A stretch of 46,784 nucleotides of DNA, taken from contig CASGEP010000019.1 of NCBI GenBank assembly GCA_949300515.1, positions 1 to 46,784 of the forward strand, read 5' to 3'. The translations under genes and the position numbers were made by a program. Numbering within the stretch: position 1 is the stretch's first letter; each line of letters opens with the position of its first letter. The notes beneath the pieces were generated by a model. The model was not told the DNA's origin. It worked only from the letters and a program-made list of their open reading frames with translations, and did no database searches. Shown one piece after another: positions 1 to 16,498 of this stretch. Origin of the DNA: an uncultured bacterium (GTDB lineage: Bacteria > Cyanobacteriota > Vampirovibrionia > Gastranaerophilales > Gastranaerophilaceae).

Positions 1-118
1 TCATGAAAACTTCGACGGTAAACAAAACGACATAATGACCCAAGAAGGCGCAACATTTGTCGTTAACGGCGAAGAACACGAGTACGCCGATATCTGGCAC
101 GCTAAAAAAGATGAATAA
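1..118 (+). CDS. 3' end of a tandem EF-hand/coiled-coil protein (paralogue 0, partial)
   Basis: Only the last 38 or so codons lie in the window, in frame from base 2 (cat) to the TAA at 116-118. The reading is almost identical to the C-termini of the paralogues ending at 3777 and 5536: the segment with NFDGKQNDIMTQEG, then VVNGEEHEYADIW and the final KKDE. This shows that the tandem array extends leftwards beyond the window, so at least four copies exist. It is followed after 27 bases by the next copy, with the same AAAGGAG ribosome-binding site. The function is unknown; see the complete copies. Confidence 0.85.
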   Translation, partial: HENFDGKQNDIMTQEGATFVVNGEEHEYADIWHAKKDE

Positions 119-145
119 TATTACAAAAGTATAAAGGAGTATAAA

Positions 146-1834
146 ATGTCATCGATTAACAACAACTATCTGTTAAACCTGATAAACTCAGGACAACAAG
201 ACCTCACCGGTGTGCAAAAATCTCTCGAAACGGCACAAAACAATCTGTTCGGACTCAACTCGATAACTGCGGGTGGCGACAGCTTTATAAGCACAACCGA
301 AGCAGGCAGCGCATTTTTGGCAAATGCTGCTCAGGCACAGAGCAAACAGGAAACACAATTAACGGGAACAAAAGACAGTAACGGATTTTTCGTTGCAACA
401 GGCAGCTACGCAAACCAAATTCAGCAATACCAACAATATATATCCCAGCTGGAAGAACAAATTAAAGAATACGAACAACTGCTGGAACAATACAACACCC
501 AGCTTGAAACAGAAAAAGCAAACCTTGAAGCTACAAATCAAAAAATAGCGGCGACCGAGAAAGAACTTGAAAATCTTGAAAATCAAAAAGCAGCTAAAGA
601 AGCACAGTACAACAGCGTTTTAGCTCAGCTTAATCAGGCAAAAGCAAATAACGAAGACGGCAAACAAGACACCGTTATAAGCAGCCTGACTTCAAAATTA
701 AACGGACTCTCGACTGAAATAACCACTCTAAATACAAATATAACCGTAAAAACGGGTCAACTCCAAAACTATCAGGCACAAGCCTGCACAATTCAGGCAA
801 CAATTGCCGATTTGGAAGAAAAAATCGATACAACGGAAACCCTTAAAACAACCGCAGAAGTTCAAAAAGCCGATGCTCAGGAAAAACTCTGCGCGGCACA
901 AAAGGCAAAAGCAGCAGAAGATGCAAGAAAAGCTGCACAGGCTCAAGCACAGGCTCAAGCACAGGCTCAAGCACAGGCTGAAGCAAAAAAAGAAACTCAG
1001 GAAAAAGCCAACATAACGGACGGCGAATCTCTCATGTCGCAGCTTTCTGATGAAACAAAAGGCTACATAAAAGATAATAATATTGACCTAACGGAAACTT
1101 ACGAAAACGGAAATGCTAAATATGCAATAGCCCCCGGTGATACTGACGGCGAATATCACGTCTATGAAATGGACGAAAACGGTACAAGAGGAAGCAGCAT
1201 TACGCAAGCAGAATTTGGTAACAATAATTTGTATAATATGCAAGACTGCGATGATGGCGTAAATGTATACACCGTAACAGATGCAAACGATGATTTATCA
1301 GACTGTGACTACGAATGCAGCACTAAATCATACAACACGGCTTCCCCCCTATCCTTTGACCTTGAAGGCGACGGCATAAAGACATCCGATGAATTAATAC
1401 AATACGATATCGACGGCGACGGCGACTTAGATACTATTAACGACTCAGCAGACGCTATCCTTGTCTTTGATGCTGACGGTGACGGTATCTCAGGTGAAGA
1501 CGGCTCCGAATGCTTCGGCGATAACACAGACTTAGACGGCGACGGCGTTGCAGACGGCTACAAAGACGGCTTTGAAGCCTTAAAAGCACTTGCCAATAAA
1601 GAAGGTCTTGTAAACGGCAAAGACGATAATAAACTGGACGAAAACGACCTTAAGATATTAGAAGAAAAATACGGTTTACAAATCAAAACCGACGGTTATA
1701 ATTCCGAAGGCTCATCATTGTTTGATGCAGGTATTACAGAAATTAACCTTGCAACGACAGATGAAACAACACTTCATGAAAACTTCGACGGTAAACAAAA
1801 CGACATAATGACCCAAGAAGGCGCATGTCGTTAA
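146..1834 (+). CDS. Tandem calcium-binding coiled-coil protein, copy A (C-terminally frameshifted)
   Basis: A 562-residue protein of unknown function. Residues 1-50 form a conserved N-terminus (SSINNN..., LFGL.SITAGGDSFIST) without a signal peptide or membrane segment. About residues 88-285 are Gln/Glu/Ala-rich heptads predicted as coiled coil, ending in an AQ repeat tract. About residue 400 onward is the shared cassette: SPLSFDLEGDGIKT, then acidic DxDxDG loops (DIDGDGDLD, DADGDG, DLDGDG), GSECFGDNT and DGFEALKAL. This order resembles the calcium-binding module near the C-terminus of type I-secreted RTX proteins (GSELFGDNT, DGFAAL); that match is from memory of the family. Relative to its sisters, 5 bases are missing after 1823 or so, so the protein ends in GACR and loses the conserved last 22 residues. 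AAAGGAG at 133-139 supports the start. An extracellular or surface structural role is inference. Confidence 0.85.
   Translation: MSSINNNYLLNLINSGQQDLTGVQKSLETAQNNLFGLNSITAGGDSFISTTEAGSAFLANAAQAQSKQETQLTGTKDSNGFFVATGSYANQIQQYQQYISQLEEQIKEYEQLLEQYNTQLETEKANLEATNQKIAATEKELENLENQKAAKEAQYNSVLAQLNQAKANNEDGKQDTVISSLTSKLNGLSTEITTLNTNITVKTGQLQNYQAQACTIQATIADLEEKIDTTETLKTTAEVQKADAQEKLCAAQKAKAAEDARKAAQAQAQAQAQAQAQAEAKKETQEKANITDGESLMSQLSDETKGYIKDNNIDLTETYENGNAKYAIAPGDTDGEYHVYEMDENGTRGSSITQAEFGNNNLYNMQDCDDGVNVYTVTDANDDLSDCDYECSTKSYNTASPLSFDLEGDGIKTSDELIQYDIDGDGDLDTINDSADAILVFDADGDGISGEDGSECFGDNTDLDGDGVADGYKDGFEALKALANKEGLVNGKDDNKLDENDLKILEEKYGLQIKTDGYNSEGSSLFDAGITEINLATTDETTLHENFDGKQNDIMTQEGACR
938..985 (+). 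repeat. Four 12-bp tandem units coding Gln-Ala-Gln-Ala
   Basis: The unit CAGGCTCAAGCA occurs at 938-949, 950-961 and 962-973, with a one-base variant (CAGGCTGAAGCA) at 974-985. It encodes an alternating Ala/Gln run at the end of the coiled coil of copy A. The sister copies have Ala/Lys-rich or no such tract here, so the repeat probably expanded by slippage and is likely to vary in number between strains. Confidence 0.85.
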
Positions 1835-1886
1835 CGGCGAAGAACACGAGTACGCCGATATCTGGCATGCTAAAAAAGATGAATAA
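1835..1886 (+). other. Out-of-frame remnant of the copy A C-terminal tail
   Basis: After the premature TAA at 1832-1834 the DNA still carries the coding sequence of the conserved tail (VNGEEHEYADIW, then HAKKDE and a TAA at 1884-1886) in another frame. Compared with the paralogues, five bases (ACATT) are missing at the GCGCA|TGTCG junction near 1823-1825. Because the remnant is still unmutated, the deletion is recent, or else a sequencing or assembly error. Confidence 0.8.
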
Positions 1887-1932
1887 AAATATACGGTGAA
1901 ATTAATACTACAAAAACATAAAGGAGTATAAG
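1887..1932 (+). repeat. 46-bp inter-paralogue leader, copy 1
   Basis: The 46 bases between the stop of copy A's tail remnant and the ATG of copy B match the 46 bases before copy C (3778-3823) at all but one position. The block contains the AAAGGAG ribosome-binding site (1920-1926) six bases before the ATG. It has neither a terminator hairpin nor a clear promoter, which suggests that the array is co-transcribed. Confidence 0.85.
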
Positions 1933-3777
1933 ATGTCATCAATTAACAACGATTTTTTGACAAACAAAATCAGTCAAAGCACATCAGGCTTAACAAATGC
2001 GCAAAACGCACTTGAGGGCGCAAAAAAAGACTTGTTCGGTCTGAGTTCAATAACAGCAGGCGGCGACAGCTTTATAAGCACAACCGATGCGGCAGGCGCA
2101 ACAACAGGCACTTCGCAAAGCCAATTGCCAAATACAACCGACAGCAACGGAAACTTTGTTGCAACAGGAAGCTACGCAAGCCAAATTCAACAGTATCAAC
2201 AGTACATATCCCAGCTTGAACAACAAATTCAGGAATATGAACAACAAATACAACAGTACAACACCCAGCTTGAGGCTGAAAAAGCGGAACTTGAGGCTAC
2301 AAACCAAAAAATAGCGGCAACAGAGCAGGAGCTGCAAAACTATGAAAACCAAAAAGCCGCAAAAGAAGCCCAGTACGAAAACGTTCTTGCCCAGATTGAT
2401 CAGGCGGAAGCAAACAACGAAGACGGCGAACAGGATGTTGTAATAAACAGTCTCACATCAAAATTAAATACTTTATCGACGGAAATCACTCTGCTTGGCA
2501 TAAATATATCAAGCAAGAGCGCCGAACTTGAAACATATAAAGAGCAAGCAAGCGCTTCGCAGGCAACAATTGCCGACCTGGAAGAAAAAATCAGCTCGAC
2601 CGAAACACTTAAAACAACGGCAGAACTGCAAAAAACCGATGCTCAGGAAAAACTCTGCGCGGCACAAGAGGCAAAAGCAGCAGAAGATGCGGCAAAAGCA
2701 GCTGCTGCAAAAGCAGCTGCGGAAGCGGCGAAAAAGGCGGCTGAATGCGAGTCTGACAGCGACGACAGCGACAGCTCAACTTCTTCTTCATCCTCATCCT
2801 CAACTTCAAACAAAACTGTTGACGGAAATTCAATTATGTCAATGGTTTCAGACGAAGAAAAAGCAATCATCGAAGAAGAAGGCATTGACCTGACAGAAAA
2901 GAACTCTGACGGCTCGGCAAAATACATAATCGCTCAGGGCGGCACAAGCAGCACCGATTACCACGTTTACGAAGTGGACAGCAGCGGCAACGGAAGCTCG
3001 CTTGCAAGGAAATACGCCGAAGATGAAGGCTACGACATTGTAGAAGAAGGCTACGGCAACATTTACGATGCAAGCAATGAAGATTATGACGACTGCTACT
3101 ATGCTGAGCGCGAAGTTTACAACGTAACGGGCGTGTGCGAAGATACGGGCGATGTTACGATGGAATGCAGCACAAAAGACTACGCAACGGCTTCCCCTCT
3201 ATCCTTCGACCTTGAAGGCGACGGCATAAAGACATCCGATGAATTAATACAATACGATATCGACGGCGACGGCGACTTAGATACTATTAACGACTCCGCG
3301 GACGCTATACTTGTATTTGACGCAGATGGTGATGGTATATCAGGTGAAGACGGCTCCGAATGCTTTGGAAACAATACAGACCTTGACGGCGACGGAAAAG
3401 CCGACGGATATAAAGACGGATTTGAAGCCCTGAAAGCATTAGCAGATCAAGAGGGTCTTGTTGACGGTGTTTATGACACTACGCTTGATGAAGAAGACCT
3501 GAAAGTACTTGAAGAAAAATACGGTCTGCAAATCAAAACCGACGGTTATAATTCCGAAGGCTCATCATTGTTTGAAGCAGGTATTACAGAAATTAACCTT
3601 GCAACGACAGATGAAACAACACTTCATATTAACCTTGCAACGACAGATGAAACAACACTTCATGAAAACTTCGACGGCAAGAGCAATGACATAATGACCC
3701 AAGAAGGCGCAACATTTGTCGTTAACGGCGAAGAACGCGAGTACGCCGACATCTGGCATGCTATGAAAGATGAATAA
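1933..3777 (+). CDS. Tandem calcium-binding coiled-coil protein, copy B
   Basis: A 614-residue paralogue of unknown function. The N-terminus (SSINNDFLTNKISQSTSG, DLFGLSSITAGGDSF) matches copy C closely. A long coiled coil spans about residues 75-250, followed by an Ala/Lys stretch and a Ser/Asp-rich flexible linker (about 258-285). A variable middle domain contains a YDDCYY segment. The shared acidic cassette starts near residue 421 with SPLSFDLEGDGIKT and includes DIDGDGDLD, DADGDG, GSECFGNNT and DLDGDG. A duplicated 12-residue block (INLATTDETTLH) lies near the end. The full conserved tail ending WHAMKDE is present. There is no signal peptide and no transmembrane helix. Calcium binding is suggested by the DxDxDG loops; secretion by a type I or flagellar route is inference. 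AAAGGAG at 1920 fixes the start. Confidence 0.88.
   Translation: MSSINNDFLTNKISQSTSGLTNAQNALEGAKKDLFGLSSITAGGDSFISTTDAAGATTGTSQSQLPNTTDSNGNFVATGSYASQIQQYQQYISQLEQQIQEYEQQIQQYNTQLEAEKAELEATNQKIAATEQELQNYENQKAAKEAQYENVLAQIDQAEANNEDGEQDVVINSLTSKLNTLSTEITLLGINISSKSAELETYKEQASASQATIADLEEKISSTETLKTTAELQKTDAQEKLCAAQEAKAAEDAAKAAAAKAAAEAAKKAAECESDSDDSDSSTSSSSSSSTSNKTVDGNSIMSMVSDEEKAIIEEEGIDLTEKNSDGSAKYIIAQGGTSSTDYHVYEVDSSGNGSSLARKYAEDEGYDIVEEGYGNIYDASNEDYDDCYYAEREVYNVTGVCEDTGDVTMECSTKDYATASPLSFDLEGDGIKTSDELIQYDIDGDGDLDTINDSADAILVFDADGDGISGEDGSECFGNNTDLDGDGKADGYKDGFEALKALADQEGLVDGVYDTTLDEEDLKVLEEKYGLQIKTDGYNSEGSSLFEAGITEINLATTDETTLHINLATTDETTLHENFDGKSNDIMTQEGATFVVNGEEREYADIWHAMKDE
3592..3663 (+). repeat. 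Perfect 36-bp tandem duplication in copy B
   Basis: Bases 3592-3627 and 3628-3663 are identical and each encode INLATTDETTLH. Copies A and C have a single unit at the equivalent place. The duplication is in frame, so the downstream tail is still translated. Confidence 0.9.
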
Positions 3778-3823
3778 AAATATACGGTGAAATTAATATT
3801 ACAAAAACATAAAGGAGTATAAG
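3778..3823 (+). repeat. 46-bp inter-paralogue leader, copy 2
   Basis: This second copy of the 46-base leader differs from 1887-1932 at one base (T for C). It carries AAAGGAG at 3811-3817, six bases before the copy C ATG. Its conservation indicates that duplication units run from leader to stop codon. Confidence 0.85.
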
Positions 3824-5536
3824 ATGTCCTCAATTAACAGTAACTTTCTCACAAACAAAATCAGCGCAAGCACATCAGGCTTGACAAATGCACAAAATAC
3901 GCTTGAGAGCGCAAAAGACGGCTTATTTGATTTAAGCTCCGTAACCTCGGGCGGCGACAGCTTTGTAAGTACGACAAAAGAAGCGGATACCTCATCTCTT
4001 GCCGGCACTGCAACATCTTCCACCGCTCAAACCGATATTGATAAGCAAATTGAACAGTATGAAGCCCAAATTGCAAAACTGGAACAACAAATACAGGAAT
4101 ATGAAGCTCAGCTTGAAAACTTGAACGCTCAACTCGAAGCGGAACAGGCTAATTTTGAACAAATTACTCAAGACTTAGAAACTTCTCAGGCGGAACTTGA
4201 AGAACTTCAGGCCCAATACAGCGCAAAAGAAGCAGAATACGCCCAAATTAACGCAGCTATAGAACAGGCAACAAACGAAGCGGAAGCAGAAGCCGCACAA
4301 AAACAACAGGCTGCAATATTTGAAGCTATGGCAAACTATAACGAAGAAGAAGACGGCGACTATAACACATACATGCAAGAAGCCTTGCAAGGTGTAATGT
4401 CTGATAGCTCAATAAGTACATTACTAACAGGTCTTGCCTCCGAATCAAAATCCCTTGCCGCAGAGCTTGGCAACCTTAAATTAAACATATCATCAAAAAC
4501 GGCCGAAGTACAAAATTTCCAATCCCTTCAAGCAGCTTCACAGGCAAATATCTCCTCTCTTGAAGGTCAAATAAGCAGTGTAGAAACACTGAAAGCTACC
4601 GCCGAGGTTGAAAAAACGGAAACTCAGGACAAAATAAGCGATGTTCTTGTTTCTCAGTTATCGGAAGGCGAAAAAGACCTTATCGAACAATATGACATTG
4701 ATTTGACCGAAAAACTGGAGGACGGCTCGCCAAGGTACATCTTTGCAAAAGCGGCAGACGGCAAGTATCACGTATACGATATGGTTCCAACCGACGGATA
4801 CTATAAGTCGCTGGCAAGAAAATATCTGGGATACAGTGATGAAAGTTACGATATAATCCCCTGCGGCAGCGGTGAAATGTATACAGACCAGTATAATGAA
4901 ATCACAAGCGGCGAAGGCGGTCAAAAAGTGTATTATATGAACGATTGCGGCGATATAGGCTCTAAACAGGCATGCTACCAAACATGCTCTCCCCTATCCT
5001 TCGACCTTGAAGGCGACGGCGTAAAAACATCGGATGAGCTCATCCGCTACGATATCGACGGCGACGGCGAATTGGATACAATCAACGACTCAGCAGACGC
5101 TATCCTTGTCTTTGATGCTGACGGTGACGGTATCTCAGGTGAAGACGGCTCGGAATGCTTCGGCGATAACACAGACTTAGACGGCGACGGCGTTGCAGAC
5201 GGCTACAAAGACGGCTTTGAAGCCTTAAAAGCACTTGCCAACAAAGAAGGTCTTGTCGACGGTGTAAATGACAACACGCTTGATGTAGACGACCTTAAGA
5301 TATTAGAAGAAAAATACGGTCTGCAAATCAAAACCGACGGTTACAACTCGGAAGCTTCATCCCTGTTTGATGCAGGTATTACTGAAATTAACCTTGCAAC
5401 GACAGATGAAACAACACTTCACAAAAACTATGACGGCAAGAGCAACGACCTTATGACACAAGAAGGCGCAACATTTGTCGTTAACGGCGAAGAACGCGAG
5501 TACGCCGATATCTGGCACGCTAAAAAAGATGAATAA
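3824..5536 (+). CDS. Tandem calcium-binding coiled-coil protein, copy C
   Basis: A 570-residue paralogue, last of the visible array. It has the N-terminal SSINSNFLTNKISASTSG block and LFDLSSVTSGGDSF, then Gln/Glu-rich heptads over about residues 65-145 and again about 200-270. A divergent middle part (about 275-385) includes paired cysteines near YYMNDCGD and CYQTCSPL. The acidic cassette starts near residue 389: DIDGDGELD, DADGDG, GSECFGDNT, DLDGDG, then DGFEALKAL, and the conserved tail ending WHAKKDE. The coiled coil differs strongly from copies A and B while the cassette is nearly the same, so the C-terminal part is kept uniform. There is no signal peptide. A terminator follows 27 bases after the stop. 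Function unknown; a calcium-stabilised secreted fibre or adhesin is one possibility, not shown. Confidence 0.88.
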   Translation: MSSINSNFLTNKISASTSGLTNAQNTLESAKDGLFDLSSVTSGGDSFVSTTKEADTSSLAGTATSSTAQTDIDKQIEQYEAQIAKLEQQIQEYEAQLENLNAQLEAEQANFEQITQDLETSQAELEELQAQYSAKEAEYAQINAAIEQATNEAEAEAAQKQQAAIFEAMANYNEEEDGDYNTYMQEALQGVMSDSSISTLLTGLASESKSLAAELGNLKLNISSKTAEVQNFQSLQAASQANISSLEGQISSVETLKATAEVEKTETQDKISDVLVSQLSEGEKDLIEQYDIDLTEKLEDGSPRYIFAKAADGKYHVYDMVPTDGYYKSLARKYLGYSDESYDIIPCGSGEMYTDQYNEITSGEGGQKVYYMNDCGDIGSKQACYQTCSPLSFDLEGDGVKTSDELIRYDIDGDGELDTINDSADAILVFDADGDGISGEDGSECFGDNTDLDGDGVADGYKDGFEALKALANKEGLVDGVNDNTLDVDDLKILEEKYGLQIKTDGYNSEASSLFDAGITEINLATTDETTLHKNYDGKSNDLMTQEGATFVVNGEEREYADIWHAKKDE

Positions 5537-5562: not shown

Positions 5563-5600
5563 AAAACTAAGGTCGAGCACAACGCCTGACCTTAGTTTTT
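5563..5600 (+). terminator. Rho-independent terminator of the paralogue array
   Basis: A perfect 12-bp inverted repeat, AAAACTAAGGTC (5563-5574) and GACCTTAGTTTT (5588-5599), encloses a 13-base loop and ends in a T run. It lies 27 bases after the stop of copy C and is the first terminator seen in the array. Confidence 0.85.
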
Positions 5601-14940: not shown

Positions 14941-16498
14941 CTATTCTCCAAGTGTTACGAGTAATTGATATATTTCGTTTGCAGTGTTAAATACCCTTGC
15001 GGATGCTTCATAACCGCGCTGGTATTTAATCATATCGGCAAGTTCTTCATCCAAATTTACCCCTGTTATGCTCTGTAAATTTGTCTGCTGCGACTCGTTA
15101 AGAGCGTTTGCCGTATCAAATTTTCCGCTTATATCGCTCTGCTGCAGCCCTACCTGACCTGCAAAGTATGTCAAAAATCCTTCAAAAGTTACGTTATCGG
15201 CTCCGCCGAATGTACTCATTGTTATTTTATCTCTTAGTTGTGCAGTTTCAACGATGTTGTCGGTGTTTCCGACGTTTTTCTCCCAACCGTCAACGGCGGT
15301 GTCTACCCTTGCCGTTGCAATAAGGTTAGGGTCATTTACCACGTTTTGGTTAACACTTATGCTGCTTGCCGTTATCGGGTTTCCAAGGTTAAAAATAGGC
15401 TCTGTTGAAGGAACAAGTATCTGTTCACCCGTTATCGGGTCAGTTCCAAGCCGTTTGTATAGGTTTGGGTATCGTTGACTTCCTGTGCAAAGGTGTTTGC
15501 AAGTTCGTCAATTTTGCTTCTCATGCCGCTTATTGTAATAAAACCGTCGTCCGAGGTGTTTACAATGTCAAGTATGGCGCCGATTTGCCCGCCTGATACC
15601 TCGGAGTTTGCATTTGACAATACAAGTGTTCCGTCCATGTTTTCTACCTGAACAATGGCGGGTGTTGCGGCATCTCCTGTTGTAACATTCAGCCTGTATT
15701 GCTGCTGCGCGCCCGAAACAAGCTTCATATCGCCCATTTTTACATCTACGGAGCCGTTTTTGTTGTATTCAACATTTATGTCCACGTATGACGATAAGCT
15801 GTTTAAAATATTTTCTCTTTCGACGATAAGCTGTTTAAAATATTTTCTCTTTCGTTAATGAGCCCTGTTGAGTTGTTCGCGCCTTGGATAACTATTTGTT
15901 TGTTTAGTTCTGCAAGTCTTTCAAGATTTTGGTTAAAATCTTGTACGCTCATGTAAATTTCACTGTTTTCAATTGTTGCACTTTGTTGCCAGTTACCGAC
16001 AAGCTCCTCTTGCAGTCCGTCAAGAGAGCCTGCAATTGAGTTAAATTTCATAGCGACACTTTGTGCGCTTTCAATATAAATTCTTCTTGCAGAAGGGTCG
16101 GTAGGATTTGCACTAAGGTTTTGTGCTGCCGAAAAGAATTTTTCAAAACTTGCCTGCAGCCCGTTTTCGCCCAACTCGTCGGTAATTTCTCCAAGCCTGT
16201 CCATTAAAGAGTTGAGAGTGTAGTAGTATTGTGCACCCGAGTTTGCTTCCCTCGCTGAGTTTGCGGCAGCGTTGTTTGCATAACTTGTAATTTGAGAAAT
16301 GCAAGCTCCGTTAAGCCCTCTTATATTTGCATATACGTTGTTTCCGTAGCTGTATGTCGGATTTGTCGCAAAATCCGCACGCAGTTTTATATATCCGTCG
16401 ACATTCATATTGGAAATGTTTTGTGACACGACGGCAAGTGCGTGTTGGTAATTATTCATGGACTCTCTGCTAATATTCATCGACTGTCCGATTGTCAT
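14941..16498 (-). pseudogene. flgK: Flagellar hook-associated protein FlgK, disrupted by two frameshifts
   Basis: The FlgK (HAP1) coding sequence is split over three frames. The N-terminal part (16498 to about 15803, starting TIGQSMNISRESMNNYQ, with VVSQNISNMNVDGY) runs into a perfect 32-bp tandem duplication (15790-15853) and stops. Removing one unit joins NERENILNSLSS to YVDINVEYNKNGSV, as expected for FlgK. The middle part (about 15785-15432, QEVNDTQTYTNGLEL) then ends in TR-stop because one base is missing near 15440; restoring it gives LELDPITGEQI and connects to the C-terminal part (DELADMIKYQRGYEASARVF, ending LLVTLGE). Without FlgK, flagellin cannot polymerise on the hook, so this strain would be filament-less unless the indels are reversible or sequence errors. 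Confidence 0.88.
15790..15853. repeat. Perfect 32-bp tandem duplication inside flgK
   Basis: Bases 15790-15821 and 15822-15853 are identical. Because 32 is not a multiple of three, the duplication shifts the flgK frame. Precise loss of one unit would restore it. Confidence 0.92.

What the first reader, a model, noticed from the sequence alone, without database searches (positions are those of the whole stretch)
1..5536. Tandem array of at least four paralogues with uniform C-terminal cassette and divergent coiled coils
Copies A, B and C plus the tail of a fourth share a near-identical acidic cassette and tail, while the coiled-coil and middle parts differ greatly. The nucleotide pattern in copy A is mosaic. 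From about 1340 to 1445 it matches copy B (taaagacatccgatgaatta) against copy C; from about 1445 to 1600 it matches copy C (gctatccttgtctttgatgc) against copy B; near 1690-1730 it matches B again. The switch lies around the shared AACGACTC. This is what repeated gene conversion leaves behind. An array with a fixed module and interchangeable variable regions could generate surface variation.
Basis: seen in the sequence. Interest (0 to 1): 0.72.

Follow-up and report, generated by a model that had tools for sequence, protein, structure and literature searches.

The report
Part-swapping gene array in gut bacterium
An uncultured gut bacterium carries a row of related genes, probably for exported proteins, whose parts have been reshuffled between neighbouring copies and between two bacterial species, while their shared end resembles a known calcium-binding, self-cutting protein domain but lacks the amino acid needed for cutting.

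Summary
The array is real: copies A, B, C and the tail of a fourth cut off by the contig's start (window = G000:C19:1-46784). Mosaicism is real: in copy A's cassette the silent sites switch from B to C to B (18 B, 27 C of 54 variable silent codons; clustering reached in 0 of 5000 permutations). The deeper finding shifts the emphasis: the variable part moves. Copy B's coil plus middle (2077-3200) has 5 differences, all silent, from a copy in another species of the genus, whereas leader, cassette and six other genes are far apart (dS 0.021 against 0.53-1.93). Nearest neighbours change from module to module; trees partly conflict. [quoted passage not shown]) but has Ser-Pro where FrpC has the cleaved Asp-Pro (27 of 30 cassettes), so it should not clip-and-link. 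Best reading: an operon of probably exported, Ca-binding coiled-coil proteins that evolves by recombination of four modules within and between species. Export and surface role are inferred. New variant of a known kind.

The parts
1..118 (+). tail of a fourth copy (end of cassette, stop at 116-118), cut by the contig start
146..1834 (+). copy A, 562 aa; reading frame broken near 1825, remnant of the tail continues out of frame to 1886
1933..3777 (+). copy B, 614 aa
3824..5536 (+). copy C, 570 aa
146..298 (+). leader of A (51 aa, rich in S/T/N/Q/I, no hydrophobic segment)
1933..2085 (+). leader of B
3824..3976 (+). leader of C; first 90 bases nearly identical to a G008 copy (dS 0.054) while the next 670 bases are not (dS 2.2)
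2077..3200 (+). coil plus middle of copy B: 1124 bases with 5 silent differences from a copy in species G008
4037..4654 (+). long helical hairpin (coiled coil) of copy C, residues 72-277 in the model
1031..1345 (+). middle domain of A (96% DNA identity to G008 copy A)
2833..3195 (+). middle domain of B
4646..4990 (+). middle domain of C (predicted small alpha/beta domain, no significant match in PDB)
1343..1825 (+). SPM-like cassette of A (truncated by the frameshift), mosaic of B-like and C-like stretches
3193..3777 (+). SPM-like cassette of B, with 36-base duplication
4988..5536 (+). SPM-like cassette of C
3592..3663 (+). perfect 2 x 36-base tandem duplication, in frame, in cassette B
133..139 (+). 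AAAGGAG, likely ribosome-binding site of A (same motif at 1920-1926 for B and 3811-3817 for C)
   Evidence: read from sequence
5563..5599 (+). hairpin with T run behind copy C, likely terminator and end of the array
   Evidence: -18.7 kcal/mol, z -3.99, 1 of 200 shuffles as good

Best explanation
This is a probable operon of paralogous proteins built from four modules: a 51-residue leader, a long helical hairpin, a variable middle domain, and a C-terminal cassette homologous to the FrpC self-processing module but without its cleavable Asp-Pro. SHOWN: modules have different histories; the cassette is mosaic among copies; one 1.1-kb variable block is nearly identical in two otherwise diverged species of the genus, inside a different leader and cassette; one middle domain and one leader start show the same at lower identity. 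INFERRED: the block was exchanged recently by homologous recombination anchored in the conserved leader end and cassette start, with DNA from neighbours in the gut; the proteins leave the cell without a Sec signal, possibly by one of the FlhA-type export machines of these cells; the cassette folds on meeting Ca2+ outside and stays attached instead of cutting itself off; the variable block is the part under diversifying use (recognition of host, prey, phage or competitor).
For: Silent-site switching in cassette A, 0 of 5000 permutations. B block against G008: S=237 sites, 5 silent and 0 replacement differences, dS 0.021; leader dS 1.28, cassette 0.59; other genes typA 0.918, SHMT 0.642, GT4 1.02, SpoIID 1.93, IF3 0.86, FlgL 0.527; P(<=5) 6e-41 at 0.527 and 2e-25 at 0.333, the lowest G000-G008 value of any gene compared. 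Of 383 family genomes 82 have some match to the block at E<=0.001, but only own and G008 match over its whole length. A middle dS 0.054 with saturated coil; start of C leader dS 0.054. Nearest neighbours differ by module; {C, g8_A, g8_T2} is in the best cassette tree (support 77/91) but rejected by the middle domain, AU p 0.0006. G008's B copy lies beside a glycosyltransferase-, acetyltransferase- and efflux-like gene set; in G000 and G002 the acetyltransferase- and efflux-like genes follow a DUF47-like gene and an 868-aa gene, not typA. SPM homology: 6sjw E 1.3e-5 single sequence, 1.2e-13 profile, nearly whole domain. Ser-Pro in 27 of 30.
Against: Export, surface location, Ca binding and any function are untested. 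The genomes are fragmented assemblies (named relatives are metagenome bins); the arrays lie at contig ends, and two perfect tandem duplications plus frameshifts on this contig may be assembly errors. The near-identical block rests on one pair of species. Copy A is broken and one G008 copy lacks middle and cassette, so part of the family may be decaying. Not all trees conflict: the best cassette tree, like the middle, joins B with g8_B (83/96), and the cassette does not reject A+g8_A (p 0.279) or A+B+C (p 0.097); groups for the AU test were chosen after seeing the identity table. Two other cassette triples show no significant one-sided segment on silent sites (p 0.14, 0.30). ComEC occurs in 15 of 15 genomes but also in E. 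coli.
Confidence: 0.65

Rival explanations
1. Assembly or binning artefact: reads of two co-resident species or of repeats were joined, and the mosaics are not in any cell.
For: Contigs break inside the arrays; perfect 36- and 32-base tandem duplications and frameshifts on the window contig; at the block's 3' edge a stretch of 21 bases is common to window copy B, the G008 B copy and other G008 sequence I hold, which the smallest k-mers of an assembler could just bridge.
Against: At the 5' edge the longest such stretch is 12 bases, too short to bridge with the copies known to me; the flanks of G008's contig C67 are not G000-like (acetyltransferase-like gene 71.5%, efflux-like gene 90.5% DNA identity); mosaics recur in several modules and in both assemblies.
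Confidence: 0.12
2. No recombination: strong purifying selection keeps the block and the cassette alike, and rates merely vary along the gene.
For: The cassette is a conserved domain found across the order.
Against: Identity extends to silent sites (dS 0.021 against 0.33-2.3 in the other G000-G008 genes with a finite value, two saturated) and stops sharply at 2058-2076 and 3201; silent sites switch partner.
Confidence: 0.02
3. Polymorphic effectors or toxins aimed at neighbours or predators rather than a variable surface coat: the middle domain is the active part, leader and coil deliver it.
For: Middle domain of A has dN close to dS between species (0.042 against 0.054, from 11.5 and 3.5 differences); leaders resemble type III signals in composition (the resemblance is recalled).
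Against: No room for an immunity gene between copies (spacers of 27, 98 and 46 bases); no known toxin domain over its cut-off and no fold match of the middle domain (best E 1.2).
Confidence: 0.2
4. Dose array: tandem duplication for more of one structural protein; shuffling is a neutral by-product.
For: Copies share a ribosome-binding motif and one hairpin at the end; A and B have alike coils (72% DNA).
Against: Middle domains of the three copies are only 47-56% identical in DNA, far from dosage copies; the exchange keeps different middles.
Confidence: 0.15

Closest known systems
Self-processing module (SPM) of FrpC, Neisseria meningitidis (PDB 6sjw; Kuban 2020, PMC7078468)
   Same: Homologous over nearly the whole domain; starts exactly at the Pro that follows the cleaved Asp; DxDxDG-type loops; the two Asp that the paper places at the fifth Ca site (D478, D579) align with the Asp of FGDNT and of YADIWH in copy C (passages). 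Copy B has Asn at the first of them; copy A has lost the second through its frameshift.
   Different: Ser instead of the cleaved Asp in all three copies and 27 of 30 cassettes; in A-C the domain is C-terminal and no RTX repeats were found; the Trp of the 'narrow port' aligns with Ile in copy C; no HlyD adaptor over cut-off.
Modular, recombining surface-protein or effector families of bacteria (flagellins, polymorphic toxins, pilins; recalled)
   Same: Conserved ends, variable middles, mosaic genes, exchange between relatives.
   Different: Here the ends are an N-terminal leader and an SPM-like domain, copies sit in one probable operon with own start codons, and the exchange is between species at, by gene neighbours, different sites.
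Concerted evolution of tandem gene arrays by gene conversion (recalled)
   Same: Cassette alike among neighbours, mosaic silent sites.
   Different: Only the end module is homogenised; coils and middles of A, B and C stay at 47-72% DNA identity.

Membership tests
FrpC-type self-processing module (SPM) | full-length sequence homology to the FrpC SPM | tested here: met
   phmmer E 1.3e-5, profile E 1.2e-13 over positions 2-176 of 178
FrpC-type self-processing module (SPM) | scissile Asp-Pro bond at the domain start | tested here: not met
   Ser-Pro in A, B, C; 27 SP, 2 DP, 1 TP of 30 distinct complete cassettes picked by a pattern from the fetched loci
FrpC-type self-processing module (SPM) | Ca-binding EF-hand-like loops | tested here: inconclusive
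   four D-x-[ED]-G-D-G loops in copy C; binding not measured; EF-hand models of Pfam match at most 3 of 30 cassettes each at E<=0.1
FrpC-type self-processing module (SPM) | Ca-dependent clip-and-link activity | not testable with these tools
   needs purified protein
RTX exoproteins (type I secretion) | glycine-rich nonapeptide repeats | tested here: not met
   no RTX repeat family among the Pfam and NCBIfam matches listed for A, B, C at E<=1 (the list of C is at the limit of 25)
RTX exoproteins (type I secretion) | HlyD-type adaptor encoded | tested here: not met
   0 of 15 genus genomes over the TIGR01843 cut-off (weak matches in 15 of 15); control 1 of 14 over cut-off. ATPase model TIGR03375 0 of 15, but control also 0 of 14, so uninformative
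pilS/vls-type antigenic variation with silent donors | one expressed gene plus silent, start-less donor cassettes | tested here: not met
   each of A, B, C has its own ATG and AAAGGAG; the fourth copy's start is not held
pilS/vls-type antigenic variation with silent donors | variants arise within one strain's growth | not testable with these tools
   one assembly per species
Polymorphic toxin / CDI systems | conserved N-terminus, variable toxic C-terminus, immunity gene behind | tested here: not met
   variable part is internal, C-terminus conserved, no gene in the spacers
Type III (flagellar-type) export substrates | N-terminal unstructured S/T/N/I-rich signal, export through an FlhA machine | tested here: inconclusive
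   S+T+N+Q+I 0.40-0.72 in residues 2-26 of 10 related leaders against median 0.32 (highest 0.56) in 30 other window proteins; FlhA family in 15 of 15 and 47 of 47 genomes, so no discrimination

The most novel reading that the evidence does not exclude
Gut Gastranaerophilales carry a trans-species 'payload market': an operon whose conserved leader and Ser-Pro SPM-like cassette serve as fixed sockets (export signal and Ca-triggered folding anchor) and as recombination anchors, between which whole variable blocks are traded among copies, loci and species; the proteins are substrates of a non-flagellar FlhA/FliE/FliF/FliH-type export machine that genomes of the order keep even where flagellar-type FlhA is missing.
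Probability: 0.15. Interest if true: 0.85.

Novelty: new variant of a known kind. Interest (0 to 1): 0.6.

Why it matters
These are uncultured relatives of cyanobacteria in animal guts, and how they meet hosts and neighbours is little known (recalled). A modular gene array with recent between-species exchange points to proteins under pressure to vary, and gives a concrete set to test. The SPM-like domain with Ser in place of the cleaved Asp, found in several families of the order, gives a natural set for asking what this fold does besides clip-and-link. The case also shows how a conserved end can hide that the variable part is the mobile one.

Tried and rejected
Coiled-coil matches to SMC, FliJ, GAS, PspA and the like are below curated cut-offs and judged generic coil similarity. 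Structure of copy C: coil mostly confident, cassette pLDDT 30-55 with 9 sequences, so no fold comparison of the cassette was made; middle domain alone pLDDT 75, best PDB match E 1.2, no lead. Flagellar export as the required route was weakened: by score alone, 10 of the 18 strongly cassette-positive genomes tested lack the flagellar-type FlhA (E near 1e-260) and show the second type (E near 1e-215; split over two contigs in G252; G041 is 66% complete). Competence: ComEC in 15 of 15, but also in E. coli and 9 other controls of 14, not decisive. Of the 7 of 15 genus genomes with a match, G010 and G011 were dropped as coil-only, leaving 5. Nine of the 29 order genomes match only weakly (best E 1e-12 to 9e-6). 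Literature: searches listed no paper on this array or on SPM-like proteins of this order, judging by titles and abstract starts; several lists were capped (15 of 1,313; 10 of 18; 8 of 10,655; 10 of 16), only open-licence papers are searched, and of all listed papers I opened only PMC7078468 (abstract and passages) and PMC12538545 (passages).
Full report
WHERE IT IS. The window is a whole contig, G000:C19 (46,784 bases) of a 1.72-Mb assembly in 57 contigs. So the organism is a Gastranaerophilales (class Melainabacteria or Vampirovibrionia), presumably of the gut. Gene names below for typA, pyruvyl transferase, SHMT, GT4, SpoIID, IF3 and flagellar genes of the window come from Pfam (FlgL is my reading of a flagellin-family match); HTH, trmD, DUF47, phosphate permease, glycosyltransferase, acetyltransferase, efflux and enolase are my reading of translations, not family searches.

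THE OBSERVATION. Three open reading frames on the + strand, A 146-1834, B 1933-3777 and C 3824-5536, plus the tail of a fourth at 1-118 cut by the contig start. The start is 52 bases identical to copy A, so the break is very likely a repeat break of the assembly. All 10 matches in this genome are on this contig. Each complete copy has AAAGGAG before its ATG, and a strong hairpin with T run follows copy C at 5563-5599 (the stock scan, limited to loops of 3-8, does not list it). I read this as one operon. Copy A is frameshifted near 1825 and lacks the last part of the cassette; B has a perfect 36-base duplication.

MOSAIC TEST. In the aligned cassette (159 codons common to eight copies) 54 codons differ silently among A, B and C: 18 unite A with B, 27 A with C, 8 B with C, 1 all different. 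Their order is clustered: largest one-sided segment 18.8, reached in 0 of 5000 shuffles; 8 switches among 45 informative sites, so few in 0 of 5000. Uniform silent divergence is rejected. Not all of the seven triples tested show a one-sided segment: C/g8_T2/A and C/g8_T1/g8_T2 give p 0.14 and 0.30 on silent sites, although they too have fewer switches than shuffles (p 0.004 and 0.001).

THE VARIABLE PART MOVES BETWEEN SPECIES. Against a copy of G008 (L012:2045-3850), copy B is 69-71% identical in the first two 90-base windows, 97-100% in the windows that start between 2068 and 3103, and 80-99% over the cassette. The block 2077-3200 has 5 differences in 1124 bases, all silent (dS 0.021, dN 0); leader dS 1.28, cassette 0.59. 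Six other genes of the two genomes give dS 0.53 to 1.93. Genes beside the G008 arrays give 0.33 (efflux), 2.29 (permease) and saturated values (acetyltransferase, DUF47). Five or fewer silent differences in 237 sites has P 6e-41 at dS 0.527 and 2e-25 at 0.333. The flanks of the G008 contig are not G000-like, so it is no misbinned G000 contig. At the 5' edge of the block the longest stretch common to window copy B, the G008 B copy and other G008 sequence I hold is 12 bases, at the 3' edge 21; a k-mer chimera of the known copies is thus hard at the first edge and barely possible at the second. Of 383 family genomes, 82 have some match to the block, but only G000 and G008 over its whole length. 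Similar events at lower identity: middle of A against G008 copy A (dS 0.054, dN 0.042) between a saturated coil and a cassette of dS 0.44; first 90 bases of C against G008 N2 (dS 0.054) before a coil of dS 2.2.

FOUR MODULES, DIFFERENT HISTORIES. DNA identity per module: leaders pair C with g8_N2 (90%) and g8_B with g8_N3 (91%); coils pair B with g8_B (99%) and C with g8_N2 (77%); middles pair A with g8_A (96%), B with g8_B (100%), C with g8_T1 (80%), and g8_T2 with G006 (68%); cassettes pair C with g8_A (95%) and with g8_T2 (94%). Trees: the middle domain rejects {C, g8_A, g8_T2} (AU p 0.0006), a group of the best cassette tree (support 77/91, not strong); the cassette rejects C+g8_T1 (p 0.032), which the middle does not (p 0.243). 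Against this, B+g8_B is joined in both trees (cassette support 83/96), and the cassette does not reject A+g8_A (p 0.279) or A+B+C (p 0.097). The groups were chosen, which the test does not allow for.

CHROMOSOMAL SITES. In G002, the nearest relative by typA (99.3% protein), the order trmD, HTH, pyruvyl transferase, typA has no array; in G000 the array stands directly before HTH, pyruvyl transferase, typA; in G008 a copy lies next to typA. G008 has another site: DUF47, copy A, start of N2 on one contig; tail T1, a truncated copy, copy B, glycosyltransferase, acetyltransferase, efflux gene on another. In G000 and G002 DUF47, an 868-aa gene, acetyltransferase and efflux gene are contiguous, so the two G008 contigs probably flank one array. 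The near-identical block then sits at different sites in the two species (inference). Members occur in 5 of 15 genus genomes (G000, G004, G006, G008, G012, two coil-only genomes dropped); tandem copies are seen in G000 and G008; in G012 the copies sit at contig ends, so an array there cannot be excluded.

WHAT THE CASSETTE IS. The single cassette of C matches only the FrpC SPM in the PDB with significance (6sjw, E 1.3e-5); a profile of 30 cassettes gives 1.2e-13 over positions 2-176 of 178. It begins at the Pro after the FrpC cleavage site. From abstract and passages of PMC7078468: SPM folds on Ca2+, breaks Asp414-Pro415, and links the Asp to a lysine; D478 and D579 are thought to help bind a fifth Ca2+. 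In the alignment both Asp have counterparts in copy C (B has Asn at the first, A has lost the second), while the Asp before Pro is Ser in A, B and C and in 27 of 30 complete cassettes (2 Asp, 1 Thr). These 30 were picked by a pattern from fetched loci, and nine are from this genus. Since the proposed chemistry uses that Asp's carboxylate, clip-and-link should be absent; that is inference. In a sample of the order 29 of 286 genomes match the cassette, 20 of them strongly, with very different N-termini and in several cases C-terminal extensions.

EXPORT. No leader has a Sec-type hydrophobic segment; leaders are rich in S/T/N/Q/I (0.40-0.72 against median 0.32, highest 0.56, of 30 other proteins of the window; the 10 leaders are related, so no test was made). 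No HlyD over cut-off in 15 genomes. FlhA-family genes are in 15 of 15 genus genomes and 47 of 47 tested in the order. In G000 the second FlhA stands with FliE, FliF, FliH and a transglycosylase. By score, 27 of the 47 lack the flagellar-type FlhA, and these 27 all show the second type; G018 and G037 (75% and 82% complete) show only the flagellar type and the short one. Because FlhA is universal, it neither supports nor refutes this route.

JUDGEMENT. Recombination within the array: about 0.97. Between-species exchange of the B block: about 0.87 (slightly lowered after one search found 21 shared bases at the 3' edge), the rest being assembly error. SPM homology: 0.97; no clip-and-link: 0.8. Export: 0.55. 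Role in surface or effector variation: 0.35. The report rests on one assembly per species, and I could not read raw data.

Noticed in passing
window 14941-16498 (- strand): flgK is broken: a perfect 32-base tandem duplication at 15790-15854 and a further frameshift; the G008 orthologue is intact (ORF L013 8634-10229). Real loss or assembly error cannot be told.
   Followed up: partly
L101 4416-10411 (G000:C15), L102 7310-8767 (G000:C27): Besides a flagellar-type FlhA, the genus genomes hold a second ~697-aa FlhA, in G000 next to FliE, FliF, FliH and a transglycosylase, and a ~485-aa protein with only the C-terminal half of FlhA. By score, 27 of 47 genomes of the order lack the flagellar type and all 27 keep the second one: a possible order-wide non-flagellar export machine.
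   Followed up: partly
L097 3065-5668, L098 3190-5793, L099 490-3099: An 868-870-aa gene whose protein starts with a hydrophobic, signal-like segment (by eye) sits beside DUF47 in G000 and G002 and beside a family copy in G012, at the site where G008 has the array: possible hot spot for exported proteins.
   Followed up: partly
L029 841-2496 (G012): Same middle domain and cassette start on a quite different N-terminus; the contig ends within the cassette, as does G012:C68 (L020).
   Followed up: no
window 935-985: 12-base tandem repeat (4.2 copies, Gln-Ala rich) in the coil of copy A, a possible length-variable spot.
   Followed up: no
L012 1237-1977 (G008): A copy that ends after leader and coil without middle and cassette, lying between the tail of one copy and a full copy.
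   Followed up: no
L030, L075, L078, L080: Rare relatives in the order with Asp before the Pro of the domain start, i.e. the FrpC-like residue (L078 and L080 match only part of the domain).
   Followed up: no
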